Both the position numbers and the translations under genes were made by a program. A stretch of 64,000 bases of DNA from Terriglobales bacterium (lineage in GTDB: Bacteria; Acidobacteriota; Terriglobia; Terriglobales; Acidobacteriaceae): NCBI GenBank assembly GCA_025936825.1, contig JAICSO010000001.1:744001-808000 (forward strand), in the 5' to 3' direction. Of this stretch, positions 4,673 through 17,566 are shown one piece after another; the first letter of the stretch is position 1; the number at the start of each line of letters is the position of its first letter. The notes beneath the pieces are model-generated. The model saw only the letters and a list, made by a program, of their open reading frames with translations, did not search any database and was not told where the DNA came from.

Positions 4673-6086
4673 CCCAAGCGTCACTGGTTCCGCAACACGC
4701 AATAAACGAAGAAGCCGGGCACCCTTCGAGCGGCGAGTCACGCGCTTTTCCGTTCTGCTTGTCATCCCCGGGCTGCTGGTCAGCGGAATCCTGATCTGGC
4801 TACAACCCTGGTCGCTTCAGTCCAAGTTGATTCTCATTGGCGCGGAGTTGCTAGCATGCCTGCTGATTGGCGCCGCACTTCACGATCACATTATCCGTCC
4901 CCTCCAAACGCTTGCGAACGTTGTCGGAGCGTTGCGGGACGAGGACTATTCCTTTCGCGCAAGGCTAGCCATTCCGAACGATGCCCTCGGGGAACTCTCG
5001 CTGGAGGTGAACGCCCTCGCCGACTTGCTGGCGAAACACCGTACAGGCGCTATCGAGGCTGCCGCTCTGCTGCAGCGCGTAGTCGAAGAGGTAGATATTC
5101 CAATCTTTGCGCTAGATCCAGCCAACAGGTTGCGTCTGGTGAATTCGGCAGGAGAGAAGCTTCTAAGTCAGCCACAATCTCAGTTGATGGGTAGAACAGC
5201 AGTGGACCTCAACCTGGAAAAATGTCTCTCCTGTGAAAATGAATCGCTCGTCGATCTGCATTTTGGGACTGATGCGCGTTGGTTCGTTCGCCGCAGCACA
5301 TTCCGTCAACAGGGCATTCCGCACACGCTGATCATTCTCTCCGACGTGAGCCGCGCATTGCGGGAGGAAGAACGACGGGCTTGGCAGCGCCTGATTCGCG
5401 TGCTCGGGCATGAGCTCAATAACTCGCTCGCTCCGATCAAATCGATTGCGGGAAGTCTGAATGCCAGGCTTTCTGGCAGTGGAATTCGAGAAGACGAGCA
5501 GCAGGATTTCGAGCGCGGGTTAAGCATTATCGAGAGTCGCGCGGCGTCGCTGAATCGCTTCCTGCAAGGCTATCGTCAATTGGCGCAAATGCCACCTCCC
5601 GTTCTGCGAACATGCTCGATTACCGCCATTGCTAAGCGGGTGACCGCACTGGAAACACGTGTGCCGATTTCGCTGATCCCAGGGCCCGACGTAGACTTCC
5701 ACGCCGATCCTGATCAACTTGAACAGATGCTGATTAATCTATTGAAAAACGCCGCCGAGGCGGTCTTGCAGGTCGAAAGTGGCGGAAGCAATTCAAATGG
5801 CTGCAAACAGCCCGCGTCTACAGAGCAGGTGCAACTATCTTGGAAAACGAATGGTGATGAGTTGATCCTCTTCATCGAGGACAACGGTCCGGGGCTAATG
5901 AACCCCAGCAACGCCTTCGTTCCTTTCTACACTACCAAGCCGTCCGGGAGTGGTATTGGCCTCGTGCTCGCGCGTCAGATTGCCGAGGCACACGGTGGTT
6001 CGCTGGAGTTAGACAACCGCACTGATGGCCGCGGCTGTGTCGTAAGAATTACGTTGCCTGCCAACTCAACGGTCAAGCAAAGCTGA
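4662..6086 (+). CDS. NtrY-like sensor histidine kinase
   Basis: A 474-residue membrane kinase. It has two transmembrane helices (about 29-47 and 54-73), a HAMP-like segment starting at HIIRPLQTLANVV, a PAS-like region near 140-235 with a CLSC pair, a DHp helix with H250 in LGHELNNSLAP, and a GHKL ATPase domain with N-box LINLLKNAAEAV, G1 DNGPGL and G2 GSGIGLVLAR. The short spacing between helices leaves almost no periplasmic sensor, so the signal is probably read in the membrane or by the PAS domain. The start overlaps the regulator gene by 11 nt, so the two are translationally coupled. Confidence 0.9.
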   Translation: MGSSPSVTGSATRNKRRSRAPFERRVTRFSVLLVIPGLLVSGILIWLQPWSLQSKLILIGAELLACLLIGAALHDHIIRPLQTLANVVGALRDEDYSFRARLAIPNDALGELSLEVNALADLLAKHRTGAIEAAALLQRVVEEVDIPIFALDPANRLRLVNSAGEKLLSQPQSQLMGRTAVDLNLEKCLSCENESLVDLHFGTDARWFVRRSTFRQQGIPHTLIILSDVSRALREEERRAWQRLIRVLGHELNNSLAPIKSIAGSLNARLSGSGIREDEQQDFERGLSIIESRAASLNRFLQGYRQLAQMPPPVLRTCSITAIAKRVTALETRVPISLIPGPDVDFHADPDQLEQMLINLLKNAAEAVLQVESGGSNSNGCKQPASTEQVQLSWKTNGDELILFIEDNGPGLMNPSNAFVPFYTTKPSGSGIGLVLARQIAEAHGGSLELDNRTDGRGCVVRITLPANSTVKQS

Positions 6087-6426
6087 GTTTCCAAAAGTTC
6101 TTATGAACGGCCATCAGCATATGGAAAGTTGAACGGCGGTAAATGTGAACTGCCGGATCATACTCGAAGATTGGCCATCTCACGAATCGCAATAGCACTC
6201 ATAGTTACATCAATAACTTCTAAACACCTTTAGTCGCTTAGTCGCTGCTTATGCGTGATCAGGAACGATTTCATAAGGCAGAGGGCACGTCATGACCGCG
6301 ATGGAGAAGCCCGCGATGTGAAAAGCAGCTCACGAGCAACCAGACAGCAATTGGCCACTAATTCGAGCCTTTGACGAGATGTCAGGACCGTAAGGTCAAC
6401 AATCAAATGGGGTAGAATGAAGCGAG
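6087..6426. other. Intergenic region left of the integrated element
   Basis: 340 nt with no convincing gene. The only recognisable signal is the -10-like TAGAAT at 6413-6418, placed 8 nt before the first base of the tRNA fragment; it is presumably the remaining chromosomal promoter of tRNA-Thr. No clear -35 box at proper spacing was seen, and no terminator hairpin after the kinase gene. Confidence 0.4.
6413..6418 (+). promoter_or_regulatory. Putative original -10 box of tRNA-Thr
   Basis: TAGAAT followed by GAA, 8 nt upstream of the first tRNA base at 6427. The same pattern TAAAAT-GAA occurs 10 nt upstream of the intact tRNA at 17491. I read this one as the chromosomal promoter now separated from the functional tRNA by the integrated element. 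No good -35 is visible. Confidence 0.3.
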
Positions 6427-6466
6427 GCCGACGTAGCTCAGTTGGTAGAGCAGCCGATTCGTAATC
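6427..6466 (+). pseudogene. attL: 5' half of tRNA-Thr(CGT)
   Basis: Forty bases identical to nucleotides 1-40 of the intact tRNA at 17491: acceptor strand, D arm, and anticodon arm up to AATC. Identity starts exactly at tRNA base 1 and stops in the 3' side of the anticodon stem. The following bases (attgcggatcggc) do not continue the tRNA, so no T arm or 3' acceptor strand is present and the copy cannot be functional. This is the original chromosomal 5' half left behind by integration. Confidence 0.85.
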
Positions 6467-6702
6467 ATTGCGGATCGGCTTTCGCTTTATGGAATCACGA
6501 AGTTAGAGTTCCCCAAATGGCTCAATTTCTACCCGTTCCCCGTTTGAGTAGCCCGTTTTGTGGAGCGAAAATGGAGCACTCTCAGAAGCTCGTGTGCTAT
6601 TCACTTGGGACCCATTTTTAGACTGTTGTTAGAGGATCGCACCTCCGAGGCGAGTTCAACAGAAACACAGGGATTTCTCTTAGCAAACATGGGCACAAGG
6701 AC

Positions 6703-9288
6703 TCATAGCGTGACCTTCCGCACCGGTTCGCCCGGCTTGAGGGGTGCGTTGAGGCTTTCGTTGAAGTCCCTCCACCTGGCCACCGAAACTGCGCCTTTGA
6801 TGGATCGCACATCCTCCGAAATGCCAGTCGCTGCCGTAATTGAGATTAGGTCTTTATAGCGAGAACTTGGTATTTTTGGCCTGCCGTGTTCTCCCCAAAT
6901 TTCACGAAGGCTTTCTATTTGCGACCCATCGAGAAACTTAGCAGGAGGCGTATTGATCGCGTCAGCATCTCGTCGTTTCCACATAAGCACCAAGGTCGTA
7001 TCCTTTCCCACGCCAACAGCATGTTCCGCTGCAAATTTGGCCGAAGCAACCGTATAGATCGTGTCCTCTAGTCTCTGGTTGCGGTTCTGCCCAAGAAGGA
7101 GCATCTGCGAGACTGCTGTCGGTCCACCACTTCCAATCGCACAGAGACCAGTAAATGCGTGAGAAGCTGATCCTTGCCAATTTTCCTCGTGCATCAACGC
7201 GCTCAAGGGGGATTTCCCCCAGCCAACCAGCAGAATTTGATCTGCGAACTCCTGAGAACGACGCTTAATTTCTCCCGACATCTCAGATGCTAATGTCTCC
7301 CCGAACATAGCTGCCCCTTGTTTCTTGAATTCATCAATATCCAGGTCGAAGGGGGAGAGTACAGGGTCAGAGGACCAGCGCGATAGATGTCTCCTGAAAG
7401 CCCTATGGAGCGTCTTCCTGATTTGCTGACGAGAAAAGCATTCTTTGTCATCTTGAGCGATTAGCCTCATTTCCTCGGCAATGAGGTCGGCATTGCTCGG
7501 ATCACCGGAGAACATAAGAAACCAATCGTTGAACCACCAGCCCTTAGAAACGCCCGTGTCGCAAGTTATTCCTCCATAGGACAAAGCTCCGTCCATCGCG
7601 GAGACGATCACGTTACCGTGCTCACAGGTTGCGGCAATACATACCGTCATGAGGTATTCCTCCCGATGCAATCCTAACCCTCCCCGCTTGAGTTCAATTA
7701 TGAGAATCTTTCGGATTCCAGACACTTCGCCTTTCGTGAACTCGTCTGCGGCATAGAAACCGATGGAACTATCTGGAATAACGACAAAGTCCGGTCGTGA
7801 GCGAGATGCATCAATTCCTTTTTTCTGGAACAAGTTCCGCACAACGCTATTCATGCTTCGATTTGAAGTGAATTCAACGGCTTCATACTCTGGGCCAAAC
7901 ATCCACAAACCCCGGTGAAATAGCGGTTGTAACTCATGAAGCTCATCCGCACCTTTGTCACGAATTAACTCTTGTAGTTCCTTCAAGACCCGCAGTCGTC
8001 TCTCTAGTTCACCAAGAACAATTTCTGCGTTCGTTGCGGACCAACGCAACATTAAAGAGTTCCACTTGTCCAGATCGTTCGGTGAACAAGTAGCCAGTTG
8101 CCGCAACAGGTCGTAGCCGGAGCGACTCTGTTCCAACTTGCTTAGAATCTCAGTTGTTTGGGAGAGTTCCTTTGCGGTCAAACCAGGACATTTTTCTTGA
8201 AGCTCATCAATGAACCTCCCGACCTGCCGCCTTGAAGCTGGCGGAAGTTGCGCTATCAATGCTCGGTTGTGTTGAATAGCATCTTTCTTTATTGCCTTGC
8301 GATCGTCCGCCATCAATTCACGTAGCTCTTTCGTGATAAACGAATGGACGCCCTTCCGCACTGCCCTCACCTTTTCCGAATCCTTGAATCCAGTCCAATC
8401 GGGGTACTTTTCGTCTTTCAGAATGTCAGCTTCTACAACGAAGCTGAAGCGTCGTGCTTCCGCGCTGCGTCCGTCCAAGTATTGTCCTGGGCCATCTAGC
8501 CCCTCCCACGATGGTTCGCCAATCATGCGCCTATTCACCCACCACGCAATGCCTTTCAGCTTGGTAGTCCGCTCTTGCCTCAAAGGGTCAAGTCTATGCA
8601 CAATAACTGTGCCGTATGGATCTATTTGAACTTCTTCCGTCGATTTCCGAGCAAGGCTGAGGAGCTTCACTGTTTCGTTGTTGAGGTTCACAACAAAGCT
8701 GGGATCAACGGCAAATTTGAAACCTATCAGCTCACACACTGAGGGACTTGGGAGCACATTTCGTCGAGCCACGAGAGAAATGGACGTGCCATGACCTGAC
8801 CTTTTCTTTTCGCTGAGAACATCGCACCGAAATGGGAGTGGACCTCCGTTGGTGAGTTGAACTATTGCTGTGGTGCAATGCCCATCTTTCCAGGTCTCGA
8901 CTTGGTATTCATCCGCAAAGCAAAGCGGACTGAATCTCCCTTTGCCGTTGTGACCAAATGCGGTCCTTTGTTTCTTAAGCACGGTAGAGGGAAATACAAC
9001 TTCCGTGCCCTGCTCTGCAATGCGGTTATATCGCAGCGTTCGCCAGCGGGTCTCAAATTCCTTTCTTGTCATGCCCGTTCCGTTGTCGGTGATTGACAGC
9101 GAATCGCCCACGAGGGCGGGCCATTTTATTTCGACTTGGTTCGCCCCTGCGTCATAGCAATTCGCAACGAGTTCAAGAATTGCCACAGTGGGTTCTTGAA
9201 TAATTTGGCCTACATGGTCTTGGAGAAAGTCCGTCCCGAAAAGGAACTGACCATTGTTCCCTCTTGTTGCCAACGCTGCGTTCGTCAT
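6703..9288 (-). CDS. GHKL ATPase - truncated PD-(D/E)XK (Shedu-like) nuclease - proteasome-like Ntn hydrolase fusion
   Basis: An 861-residue open frame with three parts. Residues 15-200: Hsp90/MORC-type GHKL ATPase with N-box ELVANCYDA (39-47), G1 DNGTGM (68-73), lid GHNGKGRFS (112-120) and HGTSIS (166-171). Residues 445-545: a DUF4263/Shedu-like nuclease, with FGPEYEAVEFTSNRS, D500 in SRPDFVV and E532-x-K534 in IIELKRGG. This domain stops abruptly at HREEY instead of continuing about 100 residues. From M547 a different family begins, MTVCIAATCEHGNVIVSAMD, with the look of proteasome-like Ntn hydrolases in which Thr after the initiator Met is the nucleophile. A good internal ribosome-binding site precedes M547, so two products are possible. 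Proteins with ATPase plus DUF4263 domains often occur in anti-phage settings; a defence role here is inference from family and island location. Confidence 0.75.
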   Translation of the reverse strand: MTNAALATRGNNGQFLFGTDFLQDHVGQIIQEPTVAILELVANCYDAGANQVEIKWPALVGDSLSITDNGTGMTRKEFETRWRTLRYNRIAEQGTEVVFPSTVLKKQRTAFGHNGKGRFSPLCFADEYQVETWKDGHCTTAIVQLTNGGPLPFRCDVLSEKKRSGHGTSISLVARRNVLPSPSVCELIGFKFAVDPSFVVNLNNETVKLLSLARKSTEEVQIDPYGTVIVHRLDPLRQERTTKLKGIAWWVNRRMIGEPSWEGLDGPGQYLDGRSAEARRFSFVVEADILKDEKYPDWTGFKDSEKVRAVRKGVHSFITKELRELMADDRKAIKKDAIQHNRALIAQLPPASRRQVGRFIDELQEKCPGLTAKELSQTTEILSKLEQSRSGYDLLRQLATCSPNDLDKWNSLMLRWSATNAEIVLGELERRLRVLKELQELIRDKGADELHELQPLFHRGLWMFGPEYEAVEFTSNRSMNSVVRNLFQKKGIDASRSRPDFVVIPDSSIGFYAADEFTKGEVSGIRKILIIELKRGGLGLHREEYLMTVCIAATCEHGNVIVSAMDGALSYGGITCDTGVSKGWWFNDWFLMFSGDPSNADLIAEEMRLIAQDDKECFSRQQIRKTLHRAFRRHLSRWSSDPVLSPFDLDIDEFKKQGAAMFGETLASEMSGEIKRRSQEFADQILLVGWGKSPLSALMHEENWQGSASHAFTGLCAIGSGGPTAVSQMLLLGQNRNQRLEDTIYTVASAKFAAEHAVGVGKDTTLVLMWKRRDADAINTPPAKFLDGSQIESLREIWGEHGRPKIPSSRYKDLISITAATGISEDVRSIKGAVSVARWRDFNESLNAPLKPGEPVRKVTL
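7648..7664 (-). promoter_or_regulatory. Internal ribosome-binding site and ATG for the Ntn-hydrolase part
   Basis: On the minus strand GGGAGGA (7658-7664) lies 7 nt before an ATG (7650-7648) inside the large frame, exactly where the protein family changes. Translation from here would give a free-standing protein of about 315 residues (6703-7650) starting MTVCIAA, the usual start of its relatives as I recall them. It suggests that a downstream gene was joined in frame to a truncated upstream gene and may still be translated on its own. Confidence 0.6.
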
Positions 9289-9586
9289 ATGAGTTGACCC
9301 TGAAGCCTAAATAGTATTCGTGTGAAGGCGAATAGAAAGCGAACACATTATACTCCGATGGTGAATGAGGGCAAGCGTGTTCTGCTGATTGCTGCCGCAA
9401 TTTTAGCAGTACGGAATAGGCCAATTATGAAGTATCCCGAATGACGGGACCTCATACCTTTGAATTTGTGGGGACTTTGGGAGCTTTGGATTCTGCTTCT
9501 TTGAATCGCCGGATATCGGTTAGCCAGGGCGGAGTAGATCTAGCCCGATGTTATGGACTCCCGGTTGGGAACGAAAGCTGAGAAGG
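9289..9586. other. Region upstream of the ATPase gene
   Basis: About 300 nt between the divergently read ATPase start and the end of the zinc-ribbon gene. It should hold the ATPase promoter, but I see no convincing -35/-10 pair and no gene. Confidence 0.3.
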
Positions 9587-9802
9587 TTAGCGACTTGGCG
9601 TTACATCTTTAACGTTCTGAAATGCCCTCCCACAATTAGGGCAGACACTCTGGGCAAGGAAAATCGTATCCAGCGGGGAGCCGAGAACCGTGAGGTGGCA
9701 ATGCGGGCAGGTGGTCTCTCGCTCTCTTCGTGGGACGCGCAACACTTTCACGCTGTTGTGAGGCGGCTTTTCCGCTGCTATTTTACGTCGTCCTTTTGGC
9801 AC
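9587..9802 (-). CDS. Small zinc-ribbon protein
   Basis: 71 residues from a GTG start, reading PKGRRKIAAEK at the N-terminus. Two metal-binding knuckles, TCPHC and VCPNC, are about 25 residues apart, a standard zinc-ribbon layout, preceded by a basic segment. No specific family is recognised. Small zinc-ribbon proteins in islands may bind nucleic acids or partner proteins, but nothing in the sequence decides this. The gene stands alone on the minus strand. Confidence 0.55.
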   Translation of the reverse strand: MPKGRRKIAAEKPPHNSVKVLRVPRRERETTCPHCHLTVLGSPLDTIFLAQSVCPNCGRAFQNVKDVTPSR

Positions 9803-10213
9803 GCATCTGGGATGCAGACGAGAGTTGAATGGTGAAGTGTGCAGGAGGCAGGCAGTTTGGGCACCCGCTCTCCTGATACCGATAATACTGGCGAATGTCC
9901 TTAACTTAGCAACAGTCTAAAAACGGGTCACACTTTCGTCAGTTTGCGCCCCCAAGGGATACTGCCAGAATGTGAATCACTACTCGGTCATTCGTTTCCT
10001 GCCATGATTTTCAATCCGTCTGGTTGTCAGGACTGCGGGTGCAATGAAGCGTATCGTTCTCGGCCCGCAATAGTTTTGAAAAAACGTGCTCCCGTTGTTC
10101 TTTCTCCAGCCCGTACGTTGTGCGAATTGTTTTCGGAGGAGAACCTCGTTCTCATTCAGCGTTCGCTCCACGTGGGCCTAGCGACTTCAAAATTACCGCA
10201 GGTTGTGCAAACA

Positions 10214-10246
10214 AAAAAGCCGCCATTGTTGTGCAACGGCGGCCTT
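10214..10246 (-). terminator. Intrinsic terminator, leftward
   Basis: On the minus strand GCCGCCGTTG pairs with CAATGGCGGC (10 bp, one G-U) across a 5-nt loop, followed directly by TTTTTTG. This is a strong factor-independent terminator for leftward transcripts. No good leftward gene directly upstream was found, so it may serve a lost gene or a small RNA. Confidence 0.7.
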
Positions 10247-10256
10247 CTCCCCCTGA

Positions 10257-10291
10257 CCCGCTAGAGCCTCAAAGCTAGCGGGACGTTTTTT
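10257..10291 (+). terminator. Intrinsic terminator, rightward
   Basis: CCCGCTAG (10257-10264) pairs with CTAGCGGG (10274-10281) around a 9-nt loop, then ACG and seven T. It would stop rightward transcripts. It sits immediately beside the leftward terminator, so the pair insulates the two halves of the island from each other. Confidence 0.7.
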
Positions 10292-10545
10292 TCATCATCC
10301 GAAAACTAGAATCACGAAAACAACTACCGCCAGAACGCCTGCGACTACTCGGATCAGAGTGACGTGTTCATTCAGAAGCGCACTGACGAACGCGCGTGGA
10401 ACGGCCCGCAAAAGCCAAGAAGCCCGCCTCATTTGTGGTTATCAGAAGAAAGGAATAGACTCAATCTTGTCTATTTCACATCCTTCCGACGCGCCTGACG
10501 GGTGCCGGTTCCTTGTGCGACAGATGTCCACAGGAGGCCGTGAAA

Positions 10546-10779
10546 ATGGCAGACCCGTTCGTCCCTCGACACCAAAACACCCCCGACGCATCCCCGTATT
10601 GTTCTGACCCGAATTGTGAGAGCTGCAAACAATTGAGAGAAACTCAGGAAGCGATCAGGTTGCGCTTACCGCTCCCGTCAGAAAAAGAATTAGACCGCCG
10701 CTTAGAGCGCCGCTATTTGGAACGGCGCCGTCGCGCTCAATATCAGCAGCGCAGGGCAGGCAATGGGCAGAAGCAGTAA
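10546..10779 (+). CDS. Small cysteine-containing, highly charged protein
   Basis: 77 residues from ATG 10546, chosen because AGGAGG lies 8 nt upstream. The N-terminal half has YCSDPNCESCKQL, a possible metal site (three Cys). The C-terminal half is very rich in Arg and Glu (LDRRLERRYLERRRRAQYQQRR), probably one basic helix. No family is recognised; the arrangement is compatible with a small nucleic-acid-binding protein. Confidence 0.5.
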   Translation: MADPFVPRHQNTPDASPYCSDPNCESCKQLRETQEAIRLRLPLPSEKELDRRLERRYLERRRRAQYQQRRAGNGQKQ

Positions 10780-16305: not shown

Positions 16306-17472
16306 ATGGCAAGAATTCAGAAGGGATACATCAAGAAGTCCCACGGTGCGTGGTTTGGAATTTGGTATCAGGATGAGCTGAAGGATGGCACGATCAAACG
16401 AGTGCAGAAGTCGAAGAAGCTGGCGACGTGCGGAGGAAGGTATCGGTGCAAGCGAGATGTCAAACCGCTCTTGGATGAAATCCTAGAACCACTCAACAGT
16501 GGAAGGTGCGATGTACGATCCACCATGTCCCTTTGTGAGTTCGTGGAGAATGATTGGCTTCCACACTGTGAGCGAGAATTGCGTCCGGCGACCATCAGGG
16601 GCTACAAGGACGTTTGGAATCGCCACATGAAGCCGTACATTGGCCAGCTTTCTCTCAGAGAGATTCAGGCCGTCACTGCCACAGACCTCCTTGCAAGATT
16701 GCGACAAAGGGGGGTCGGCCATCGGACACTCCGTTACGTGAAGGCACTAGGTTCGGCAATTTGCTCCAGGGCACTAGCGTATAGCATCTTGCACGGTTCA
16801 AATCCGTTTGCGTTAGCCGAACTGCCGAAATGTCGGGGGAAGCGATTGGCGAAGCCTCAGAGCACGATTCAGGATGTCTGGGCGATGCTTCAGGTACTGA
16901 AAGACGTGAAGGCACGAGCGGCAATTGCATTGACGTTCTTCGGTGGACTGGTGCCATCAGAAGCAAGGGGAACGCTCTGGGAGAACTACGACGGCAATAC
17001 ATTGAAGATCAGTCAGAGTGTTTGGCGGACCCATGCCGGACCCGTGAAGACGGAAGCACGAGAAGCTCCAATCCCTATTGTTGAGCCGTTGCGCGGGATT
17101 CTCATTGAACTGAGAAGGATTGACGGTAGCCCTGCCTCAGGACCAATCCTCAGGGGTAAGAGGGGCAGACCACTGAACCTGGACAATCTGAATCGTCGCG
17201 TGATCGCTCCTACGCTCAAAGGAGCTGGCATTCCGTGGCATGGTTTTAGGCCAAATCGAACCGGTGTGAGCACTATTGCGACGGCTCTAGCCAAGGACAA
17301 CGGCCTAGCCGCGAAGGGGCTGCTCCGTCATTCGCAATTGGCAACCACGGAGCGAAACTACATTCAGACTGTGCCGGATGAAACACTGGCTGCCATGAAT
17401 GCGTTAGAGCGTCAGTTTGCGGAGTATGGAGCAAAGATGGAGCAAGCTGCACTGGCCACTATTCCGAATTAG
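16306..17472 (+). CDS. Tyrosine-type site-specific integrase
   Basis: 388 residues. An N-terminal SAM-like core-binding domain (about 72-165, with TIRGYKDVWNRHMKPYIG) is followed by the catalytic domain: R221 (PSEARGTLW), K248 as likely lysine, H312-x-x-R315 (HGFRPN), H342 (LLRHSQ) and nucleophile Y352 (ERNYIQ). AAGGAGGAAAG precedes the ATG. The gene ends 18 nt before the intact tRNA-Thr, the usual place for an integrase that uses the tRNA as attachment site, so it is almost certainly the recombinase of this element. All catalytic positions are present, so it may be active. Confidence 0.92.
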   Translation: MARIQKGYIKKSHGAWFGIWYQDELKDGTIKRVQKSKKLATCGGRYRCKRDVKPLLDEILEPLNSGRCDVRSTMSLCEFVENDWLPHCERELRPATIRGYKDVWNRHMKPYIGQLSLREIQAVTATDLLARLRQRGVGHRTLRYVKALGSAICSRALAYSILHGSNPFALAELPKCRGKRLAKPQSTIQDVWAMLQVLKDVKARAAIALTFFGGLVPSEARGTLWENYDGNTLKISQSVWRTHAGPVKTEAREAPIPIVEPLRGILIELRRIDGSPASGPILRGKRGRPLNLDNLNRRVIAPTLKGAGIPWHGFRPNRTGVSTIATALAKDNGLAAKGLLRHSQLATTERNYIQTVPDETLAAMNALERQFAEYGAKMEQAALATIPN

Positions 17473-17490: not shown

Positions 17491-17530
17491 GCCGACGTAG
17501 CTCAGTTGGTAGAGCAGCCGATTCGTAATC
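17491..17530. repeat. attR core, 40-nt direct repeat
   Basis: Identical to 6427-6466. It includes the near-palindrome GCCGATT-CGT-AATCGGC of the anticodon arm (the left copy matches only as far as AATC), which is a natural symmetrical crossover site for a tyrosine integrase. Confidence 0.85.
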
Positions 17531-17566
17531 GGCAGGTCATCGGTTCAAGTCCGATCGTCGGCTCCA
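17491..17566 (+). tRNA. tRNA-Thr(CGT)
   Basis: Complete 76-nt cloverleaf with encoded CCA. Acceptor GCCGACG pairs with CGTCGGC; D stem GCTC/GAGC; anticodon stem GCCGA/TCGGC around loop TTCGTAA, giving anticodon CGT (threonine, ACG codons); T stem ATCGG/CCGAT with loop TTCAAGT; discriminator T then CCA at 17564-17566. Its 5' half up to base 40 comes from the integrated element and its 3' half from the chromosome. Confidence 0.95.

What the first reader, a model, noticed from the sequence alone, without database searches (positions are those of the whole stretch)
6703..9288. In-frame fusion of a GHKL ATPase, a cut-short Shedu-like nuclease and a proteasome-like Ntn hydrolase
Seen: one uninterrupted 861-codon frame whose family changes abruptly at residue 546/547. 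Known: ATPase plus DUF4263 (PD-(D/E)XK) proteins continue well past the ExK motif; Ntn hydrolases starting MTVCIAA occur as separate proteins. Inferred: a deletion joined two neighbouring genes, or this is a new three-part protein. The nuclease keeps D500 and E532-x-K534 but lacks its C-terminal part. If the fusion is functional, an ATPase would gate both a nuclease and a peptidase-like domain in one chain, an arrangement I do not know from described defence systems.
Basis: partly seen in the sequence, partly recalled or inferred. Interest (0 to 1): 0.75.

Follow-up and report, generated by a model that had tools for sequence, protein, structure and literature searches.

The report
Broken defence gene joined to protease gene
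One bacterial genome has lost the end of a probable anti-phage gene and joined the rest in frame to a complete proteasome-like enzyme gene of a kind that, in relatives, travels on jumping DNA elements; the join looks like wreckage that may still make the enzyme separately, rather than a new three-part machine.

Summary
The 861-codon frame is real (window 6703-9288, minus strand) and has no internal stop. Residues 1 to 538-544 are a GHKL ATPase plus the start of a PD-(D/E)XK nuclease (VcSduA/paraMORC3 layout). All 14 stop-free full-length relatives aligned carry about 100 more residues, including invariant Q547 and Y551, which this protein lacks. Residues 547-861 are a complete proteasome-like Ntn hydrolase with the Thr/Asp/Lys/Gly active-site set. 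No other genome searched had both halves in one frame. Met547 has its own Shine-Dalgarno, the best of 16 in-frame ATGs; its CGGGAG also precedes the start in the two nearest stand-alone relatives.

I read this as two genes joined by deletion: a nuclease gene that is probably dead, and a hydrolase gene that can still be translated from its own start, exposing the catalytic Thr.

Unexpectedly, the hydrolase's nearest relatives are passengers of IS1595-family transposons. Six elements of 2.0-2.4 kb have paired terminal repeats and 8-bp target duplications (exact in five, 7 of 8 in one). I found no report of this in the library searched. The window copy has lost that transposon and lies in an 11-kb tRNA-Thr island.

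The parts
6703..9288 (-). whole 861-codon fused frame (stop codon included)
8299..9288 (-). residues 1-330: GHKL ATPase and transducer region
   Evidence: HATPase_c_3 E 4.7e-14; model of intact relative L032 matches MORC3 at Z 22.3, rmsd 2.9, 288 aligned
7675..8298 (-). residues 331-538: helical middle region and cut-short PD-(D/E)XK nuclease with D500, E532, K534
   Evidence: alignment to 14 intact relatives
7651..7674 (-). residues 539-546: joint; most likely the former 5' leader of the hydrolase gene
   Evidence: DNA homology to L003 ends just upstream; CGGGAG shared with L004 and L116 leaders
7659..7664 (-). Shine-Dalgarno GGGAGG, 8 nt before the ATG of Met547
   Evidence: -10.3 kcal/mol, best of 16 in-frame ATGs; 0 of 50 background internal ATGs reach it
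6703..7650 (-). residues 547-861: complete proteasome-like Ntn hydrolase; T548, D566, K582, G595 = T2, D20, K36, G49 of the free protein
6427..6466 (+). 40-bp copy of the 5' half of tRNA-Thr: left end of an 11-kb island
17491..17530 (+). identical 40 bp inside the intact tRNA-Thr (17491-17566): right end of the island
16306..17472 (+). phage-type integrase next to the tRNA
   Evidence: PF14659 (integrase N-terminal SAM-like) E 7.2e-7
6606..6631 (+). left arm of a 26-nt inverted repeat that encloses the fused gene
   Evidence: 88% complementary; 0 of 30 shuffles give such a pair
9907..9932 (-). right arm of the 26-nt inverted repeat

Best explanation
The frame is a private, probably young, in-frame join of two unrelated genes. 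The upstream gene encoded a GHKL-ATPase/PD-(D/E)XK nuclease of the VcSduA/paraMORC3 layout (VcSduA is a one-gene anti-phage nuclease in V. cholerae). A deletion or illegitimate recombination removed its last 100 or so codons, including the helix with the invariant Gln and Tyr and the strands that complete the nuclease core, so it is most likely dead as a nuclease (shown: the part is missing; inferred: loss of activity). The downstream gene is a whole proteasome-like Ntn hydrolase of the type carried as a passenger by IS1595-family transposons (shown in its two nearest relatives). The join kept the hydrolase's Shine-Dalgarno and start; the leader and transposon end that relatives have upstream are absent. 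The hydrolase is therefore most likely translated from Met547 on mRNA driven by the upstream gene's promoter; Met aminopeptidase then exposes Thr548 as the nucleophile (inferred). The 861-residue read-through chain may also be made, but its hydrolase domain should be inactive unless the chain is cleaved before Thr548 (inferred).
For: Intact relatives: 14 without stops, 633-651 aa by the start used, all with the C-terminal part; the invariant residues beyond 544 (Q547, Y551, G573, A602, R605, D623, V629) belong to the missing part, and in the model of intact L032 that part holds most of helix 542-557, strands 566-573 and 588-594 and two further helices. In residues 1-544 the window keeps 93 of 94 invariant residues, and codons changed on its branch are 21 amino-acid-changing to 87 silent versus 10 to 62 for the sister (Fisher p 0.42), so decay is not visible: the join is young or the ATPase is still kept. 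Met547 has the strongest Shine-Dalgarno of 16 in-frame ATGs, -10.3 against -3.8 kcal/mol for the first ATG and -6.9 for the next best; CGGGAG precedes the hydrolase start in both nearest relatives. Thr/Asp/Lys/Gly are invariant in the six rows of alignment A5, and the free hydrolase model matches 20S proteasome beta at Z 19.7. Proteasome-like homologs other than proteasome beta and HslV have no propeptide (PMC8665760, section 13 read), so a 546-residue one would be odd. Both clade mates of the hydrolase (support 100/99) lie in IS1595 elements with paired terminal repeats and target duplications.
Against: No expression or protein data. The retained nuclease part shows no relaxed selection, which a long-dead gene should show. 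The frame stayed open and in phase across the joint (chance about 1 in 3). The window has no IS1595 transposase and no such terminal repeat near the gene, so its arrival on such an element is inferred from kin at 37-41% identity. Ribosome-binding strength was computed with a recalled anti-Shine-Dalgarno sequence, not one read from this genome. Not every passenger relative keeps the nucleophile: of 26 rows 22 have Thr at position 2, L097 has Ser, L132 (a complete element) has Ala by the start assumed, and two N-termini (L131, L133) are unresolved.
Confidence: 0.77

Rival explanations
1. A working new three-part (or, with the nuclease dead, two-part) protein: the ATPase clamp senses phage DNA or protein and switches on the C-terminal hydrolase, which replaced the nuclease as effector, perhaps after self-cleavage before Thr548.
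For: Open frame across the joint; catalytic residues of the hydrolase and 93 of 94 invariant residues of the first part are kept; no sign of relaxed selection. Shedu proteins are known to vary their N-terminal sensor domains (PMC12137116, passages seen).
Against: Found in one genome only; the hydrolase keeps its own Shine-Dalgarno and start; its nucleophile is mid-chain; the half-removed nuclease core would be a poor linker.
Confidence: 0.12
2. Assembly or binning chimera at about 7650-7675.
For: No reads available; the genome is in 141 contigs.
Against: The joint lies inside a long contig, falls just upstream of the hydrolase start with the ribosome-binding site kept, and the gene sits within a tRNA-bounded stretch of lower GC (0.516 against 0.555 for the window).
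Confidence: 0.06
3. An ancestral two-gene operon (ATPase-nuclease plus hydrolase) whose neighbours were fused.
Against: No hydrolase found in 16 of 16 ATPase-nuclease loci, 15 of which hold at least 3.9 kb downstream of the gene; no ATPase-nuclease gene found in 33 of 33 hydrolase contexts, some of them short.
Confidence: 0.05

Closest known systems
VcSduA, GHKL-ATPase Shedu (type I-D; earlier name paraMORC3), PMC12137116
   Same: N-terminal GHKL ATPase, middle region and C-terminal PD-(D/E)XK nuclease in one chain (paper: passages seen). Of 16 loci the neighbours of three were scanned: intact relative L032 lies beside a type I restriction operon, L033 beside type III restriction genes and a DrmD-like helicase, L039 beside a BrxH/HmaA-like helicase and a methylase-like gene.
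   Different: The window protein lacks the last 100 or so residues of the nuclease and ends in a hydrolase instead. The VcSduA sequence itself was not compared.
Proteasome-like family (20S proteasome, HslV, Anbu, BPH, connectase and 22 further homologs), PMC8665760
   Same: Fold (Z 19.7 to 20S beta) and Thr/Asp/Lys/Gly active-site set.
   Different: No Pfam hit at E<=1 for the window domain; two relatives reach PF00227 Proteasome only below its cut-off. Preceded in frame by another protein; nearest kin ride on IS1595 elements, which that paper does not mention (0 occurrences of 'transpos' in its main text). Which of its named subfamilies this is was not tested.
IS1595-family (ISXO2-like) insertion sequences with passenger genes (MTnSag1 and tISCpe8 are named in PMC5704250, passages seen)
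   Same: Relatives of the hydrolase lie between inverted repeats with a PF12762/PF12760 transposase and 8-bp target duplications.
   Different: The window copy has neither transposase nor terminal repeat. No proteasome-like passenger turned up in the paper searches (listings only).
BbrUII/HgiDII family restriction enzymes
   Same: ATPase part matches NF050001 with 68 bits.
   Different: Curated cut-off is 550 bits and the best stretch covers only residues 37-142.

Membership tests
VcSduA-type Shedu (GHKL ATPase + DUF4263 nuclease) | N-terminal GHKL ATPase | tested here: met
   HATPase_c_3 53 bits, cut-off 25; invariant residues of the family kept in that part except V256I
VcSduA-type Shedu (GHKL ATPase + DUF4263 nuclease) | PD-(D/E)XK residues D...ExK | tested here: met
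   D500, E532, K534 in invariant columns
VcSduA-type Shedu (GHKL ATPase + DUF4263 nuclease) | recognised DUF4263/SduA domain | tested here: inconclusive
   PADLOC SduA E 3.7e-4 over residues 320-468 and 5 of 14 intact relatives at E<=0.01; no DUF4263 model among the Pfam families listed for 14 relatives at E<=1
VcSduA-type Shedu (GHKL ATPase + DUF4263 nuclease) | complete nuclease core | tested here: not met
   everything after codon 538-544 is missing, including invariant Q547 and Y551
VcSduA-type Shedu (GHKL ATPase + DUF4263 nuclease) | anti-phage activity | not testable with these tools
   needs a plaque assay
Proteasome-like Ntn hydrolase | proteasome-type fold | tested here: met
   AlphaFold model, mean pLDDT 61 (residues 228-315 below 50); best Z 19.7, rmsd 3.3, 195 aligned to 20S beta
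Proteasome-like Ntn hydrolase | Thr1, Asp17, Lys33, Gly47 set (positions from PMC8665760) | tested here: met
   T2, D20, K36, G49 invariant in 6 rows; assignment to the proteasome positions is by sequence order, not by a printed structural alignment
Proteasome-like Ntn hydrolase | nucleophile at the free N-terminus | tested here: inconclusive
   mid-chain in the 861-residue form; N-terminal after Met removal if started at Met547, which has the best ribosome-binding site
IS1595-family transposon with hydrolase passenger (window copy) | IS1595 transposase next to the gene | tested here: not met
   no tblastn match in the window at E<=1e-3; 3 copies on other contigs of the genome
IS1595-family transposon with hydrolase passenger (window copy) | terminal repeat GATTAT(A/T)TACTTGAC | tested here: not met
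   no match with up to 2 mismatches in 5901-10600
IS1595-family transposon with hydrolase passenger (relatives L090, L123, L097, L132, L116, L101) | transposase, paired terminal repeats and 8-bp target duplication | tested here: met
   paired repeats in 6 of 6, within 2 mismatches of the motif at both ends in 5, diverged in L101; duplications exact in 5 of 6, 7 of 8 bases in L116; transposase domain by Pfam in 5 of 6, by tblastn at 37% only for L101
BbrUII/HgiDII restriction enzymes | NCBIfam NF050001 cut-off | tested here: not met
   68.2 bits against 550

The most novel reading that the evidence does not exclude
Transposons of the IS1595/IS1 group recurrently carry proteasome-like hydrolases that help the element (for example by degrading or trimming a host or transposase protein), and here such a passenger has been captured by an ATPase defence sensor as a new peptidase effector in place of its nuclease, with the hydrolase made both fused and free.
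Probability: 0.1. Interest if true: 0.8.

Novelty: new variant of a known kind. Interest (0 to 1): 0.42.

Why it matters
The fusion itself is probably wreckage, a useful caution that a long open frame joining three domains need not be one machine: the hidden second start is the clue. The larger point is the origin of the hydrolase. The survey of new proteasome homologs (PMC8665760) reported no genomic context suggestive of a function for them; here a group of such homologs sits, with clear transposon ends and target duplications, inside IS1595-family elements in four bacterial genomes and one viral-collection contig. If that holds, it gives these orphan enzymes a setting and a direct test: does the hydrolase affect transposition?

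Tried and rejected
A functional operon of the two genes was looked for and not found. The missing nuclease tail elsewhere in the genome was searched with the last 101 residues of the L003 protein: none, though an empty answer has no positive control. Hydrolase relatives in named plasmids and phages: none at E<=1e-3; by single sequence in the viral collection: none confirmed; with alignments: found. The 26-nt inverted repeat round the fused gene was tested as the end of a repeated element: its core occurs only at these two places in this genome, in 0 of 199 other family genomes at up to 1 mismatch and in 0 viral contigs; its meaning stays open. The enclosed unit has no match in plasmids by blastn. 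The joint sequence in the viral collection: none. Foldseek/VIA rows for the intact ATPase-nuclease model are filled by GHKL proteins, so they do not test the nuclease half. Apart from the window's own, G013 and G081, the matches (42 of 150 genomes) were weak, mostly short MutL-type ATPase stretches, and were not counted as relatives.

Dropped rows: L038 (one in-frame stop) and L044 (fragment) were left out of alignment A3; L049 (broken frame) was left out of A1; L102 alone stood for L102-L108 (seven loci listed with the same match figures), and L100 is the same contig as L089. Of the 33 hydrolase contexts several have little downstream sequence (L099 85 bp, L125 137 bp, L134 435 bp), and the weakest (such as L136, E 2e-5) are unsure members. 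The tree used 26 rows, 25 of the relatives and the window. The 14 genomes were picked after the adjacency had been seen in most of them.

Full report
What is there. The frame 6703-9288 (minus strand) is 861 codons with no stop and occurs once in the host genome (6.54 Mb, 141 contigs, 99.67% complete). For the whole protein Pfam passes its cut-off only for the GHKL ATPase (HATPase_c_3, 4.7e-14); PADLOC gives a weak SduA match over residues 320-468 (3.7e-4) besides restriction-enzyme matches to the ATPase.

The first part. A 150-genome search gave an 82% match to residues 1-544 in G013; a locus of the same identity and length appears in the named collection as L032, an Acidobacteriaceae MAG, with 14 further relatives, and one viral-collection relative, L052. 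Of these 16, 14 are full-length without stops (633-651 aa by the start used), L038 has one in-frame stop and L044 is a fragment. All 14 continue for about 100 residues after ExK. Their alignment has 101 invariant residues; 94 lie within 1-544, and the window keeps 93 (V256I is the exception; E544 is counted as kept but may come from the hydrolase leader). The seven beyond 544, including Q547 and Y551, belong to the missing part. In the AlphaFold model of L032 (mean pLDDT 73.9; residues 471-525 below 50) the lost part holds most of helix 542-557, strands 566-573 and 588-594, and helices 595-616 and 624-631. Plasmids also carry the intact form: 16 records match L032, and the eight best (37-40% identity) reach residue 613-639; five more rows at 22-24% end at 555-581. 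Neighbours of three of the 16 loci were scanned and all three look defence-like: L032 starts within 70 bp after a type I hsdM-hsdS-hsdR run, L033 lies by type III mod/res genes, L039 by a BrxH/HmaA-like helicase and a methylase-like gene. In the 398-genome family search 15 genomes match at E<=1e-20: 12 with the first part only (two of these distant, 24% identity), two with the hydrolase only, and the window's own with both. Of the 12, one copy is broken by stops (G207) and G959 is a 140-residue fragment, so decay of this gene is not unique to the window.

The second part. Residues 547-861 match a stand-alone protein in G081 at 41% and one in G598 at 38%. A profile of four members hits archaeal proteasome beta at 7.4e-7. 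The model of the free domain (mean pLDDT 61, tail poor) matches 20S proteasome beta at Z 19.7, rmsd 3.3 A over 195 residues. T2, D20, K36 and G49 are invariant in six rows, in the order of the Thr1, Asp17, Lys33 and Gly47 named in PMC8665760 (sections 11 and 13 read). In a wider set of 26 rows 22 have Thr at position 2, one Ser, one Ala (L132) and two are unresolved. [quoted passage not shown]

The joint. DNA similarity to the intact gene ends at about codon 538; protein similarity can be stretched to 544. Residues 539-546 contain CGGGAGG, and CGGGAG precedes the hydrolase start in both nearest relatives, L004 and L116. The duplex energy before Met547 is -10.3 kcal/mol, best of 16 in-frame ATGs; of 50 internal in-frame ATGs of seven clear genes in the window none reaches it (lowest -9.3). 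So the hydrolase gene most likely brought its own start. Codon changes on the window branch (21 replacing, 87 silent) do not differ from the sister (10, 62; p 0.42), so the join is young or the first part is still selected; this result counts somewhat against simple wreckage.

The hydrolase and transposons. In L090 (G081) and L116 (G598) a convergent IS1595 transposase (PF12762, PF12760) overlaps the end of the hydrolase gene. Of 33 hydrolase contexts, 10 have an IS1595 transposase beside the gene (one a fragment, L091), five a full IS1-like transposase (L098, L125, L129, L139, L088; PF03400 by Pfam in the two tested, L098 and L051, the latter the same place as L139), two only a partial IS1-like match (L096, and L092 at 2.3 kb), and 16 neither with these two queries. 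Six elements have paired inverted ends and, at the same distance outside, an 8-bp direct repeat: exact in L090, L123, L097, L132 and L101, 7 of 8 in L116; 2.0-2.4 kb long. In five of them both ends lie within 2 mismatches of GATTAT(A/T)TACTTGAC; the ends of L101, from the viral collection, have diverged. L131 and L126 show one such end (L126 is cut by its contig) and L133 imperfect ends. Fourteen genomes, most picked because the adjacency had been seen, hold 0-15 IS1595 copies each; a rough estimate of chance adjacency gives 0.007 of 18 loci against 9 seen. In a tree of 26 rows the window domain groups with L090 and L116 at 100/99, and IS1595-borne members fall in several other branches, so the association is either old or repeated. 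No paper in the library holds both 'IS1595' and 'proteasome'; the main text of PMC8665760 has no 'transpos' and says that no genomic contexts suggestive of a function were found. Subscription papers, including the IS1595 family review by Siguier and others (seen only in a reference list), were not available, so novelty is not proven.

The window copy. It has no IS1595 transposase and no such terminal repeat nearby; no IS1595 transposase was found in the 16 ATPase-nuclease loci either. The gene lies in an 11-kb stretch bounded by identical 40-bp copies of the 5' half of tRNA-Thr (6427-6466 and 17491-17530) with an integrase at the right end and lower GC (0.516 against 0.555). A 26-nt inverted repeat (6606-6631, 9907-9932) encloses the fused gene; 0 of 30 shuffles give such a pair.

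Mechanism and verdict. Shown: the truncation, the complete hydrolase, the second ribosome-binding site, the absence of the fusion in the other genomes searched, the transposon context of kin. Inferred: deletion as the cause, dead nuclease, separate translation and Thr exposure by Met removal. The three-part machine is possible but unlikely (about 0.12). The interesting by-product is a proteasome-like hydrolase as a recurrent transposon passenger.

Changes made on checking against the calls: the number of ATPase-nuclease loci with long downstream sequence was recounted (15 of 16), the two genes were also searched for in the wider contexts, the plasmid count was restated by where matches end, the restriction operon is now said to precede the gene closely instead of overlapping it, and the exceptions at the nucleophile position and in the L101 ends were added.

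Noticed in passing
L090:5888-7974, L123:3877-6186, L097:5900-7915, L132:3612-6027, L116:2208-4336, L101:4932-7080: IS1595-family transposons of 2.0-2.4 kb carrying a proteasome-like Ntn hydrolase as passenger, with paired ends and 8-bp target duplications.
   Followed up: yes
L139, L098, L088, L125, L129: IS1-like transposase genes next to members of the same hydrolase family; element ends not mapped.
   Followed up: partly
L132 hydrolase, start at about 3713: A complete IS1595 element whose hydrolase has Ala at the nucleophile position (by the assumed GTG start): perhaps an inactive enzyme or a different start.
   Followed up: no
window 6427-6466 and 17491-17566: 11-kb island ending in tRNA-Thr(CGT), with a duplicated 5' half of the tRNA (the more usual case, from recall, is the 3' half) and an integrase; carries a response regulator, a Crp-like regulator and a cation-efflux protein.
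   Followed up: partly
window 6606-6631 and 9907-9932: 26-nt inverted repeat, 88% complementary, enclosing the fused gene; its core was not found in 199 other family genomes or the viral collection.
   Followed up: partly
L032:3938-11935: Intact ATPase-nuclease gene directly follows type I restriction genes (hsdM, hsdS, hsdR), suggesting a joint defence locus.
   Followed up: partly
L117 (G207) and L118 (G959): Broken copies of the ATPase-nuclease gene in related genomes: one with in-frame stops, one a 140-residue fragment.
   Followed up: no
L091, L092, L097 upstream of the hydrolase: A short conserved stretch (RPADWG) is encoded just before the hydrolase start in three members; leader peptide, earlier start or DNA signal.
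   Followed up: no
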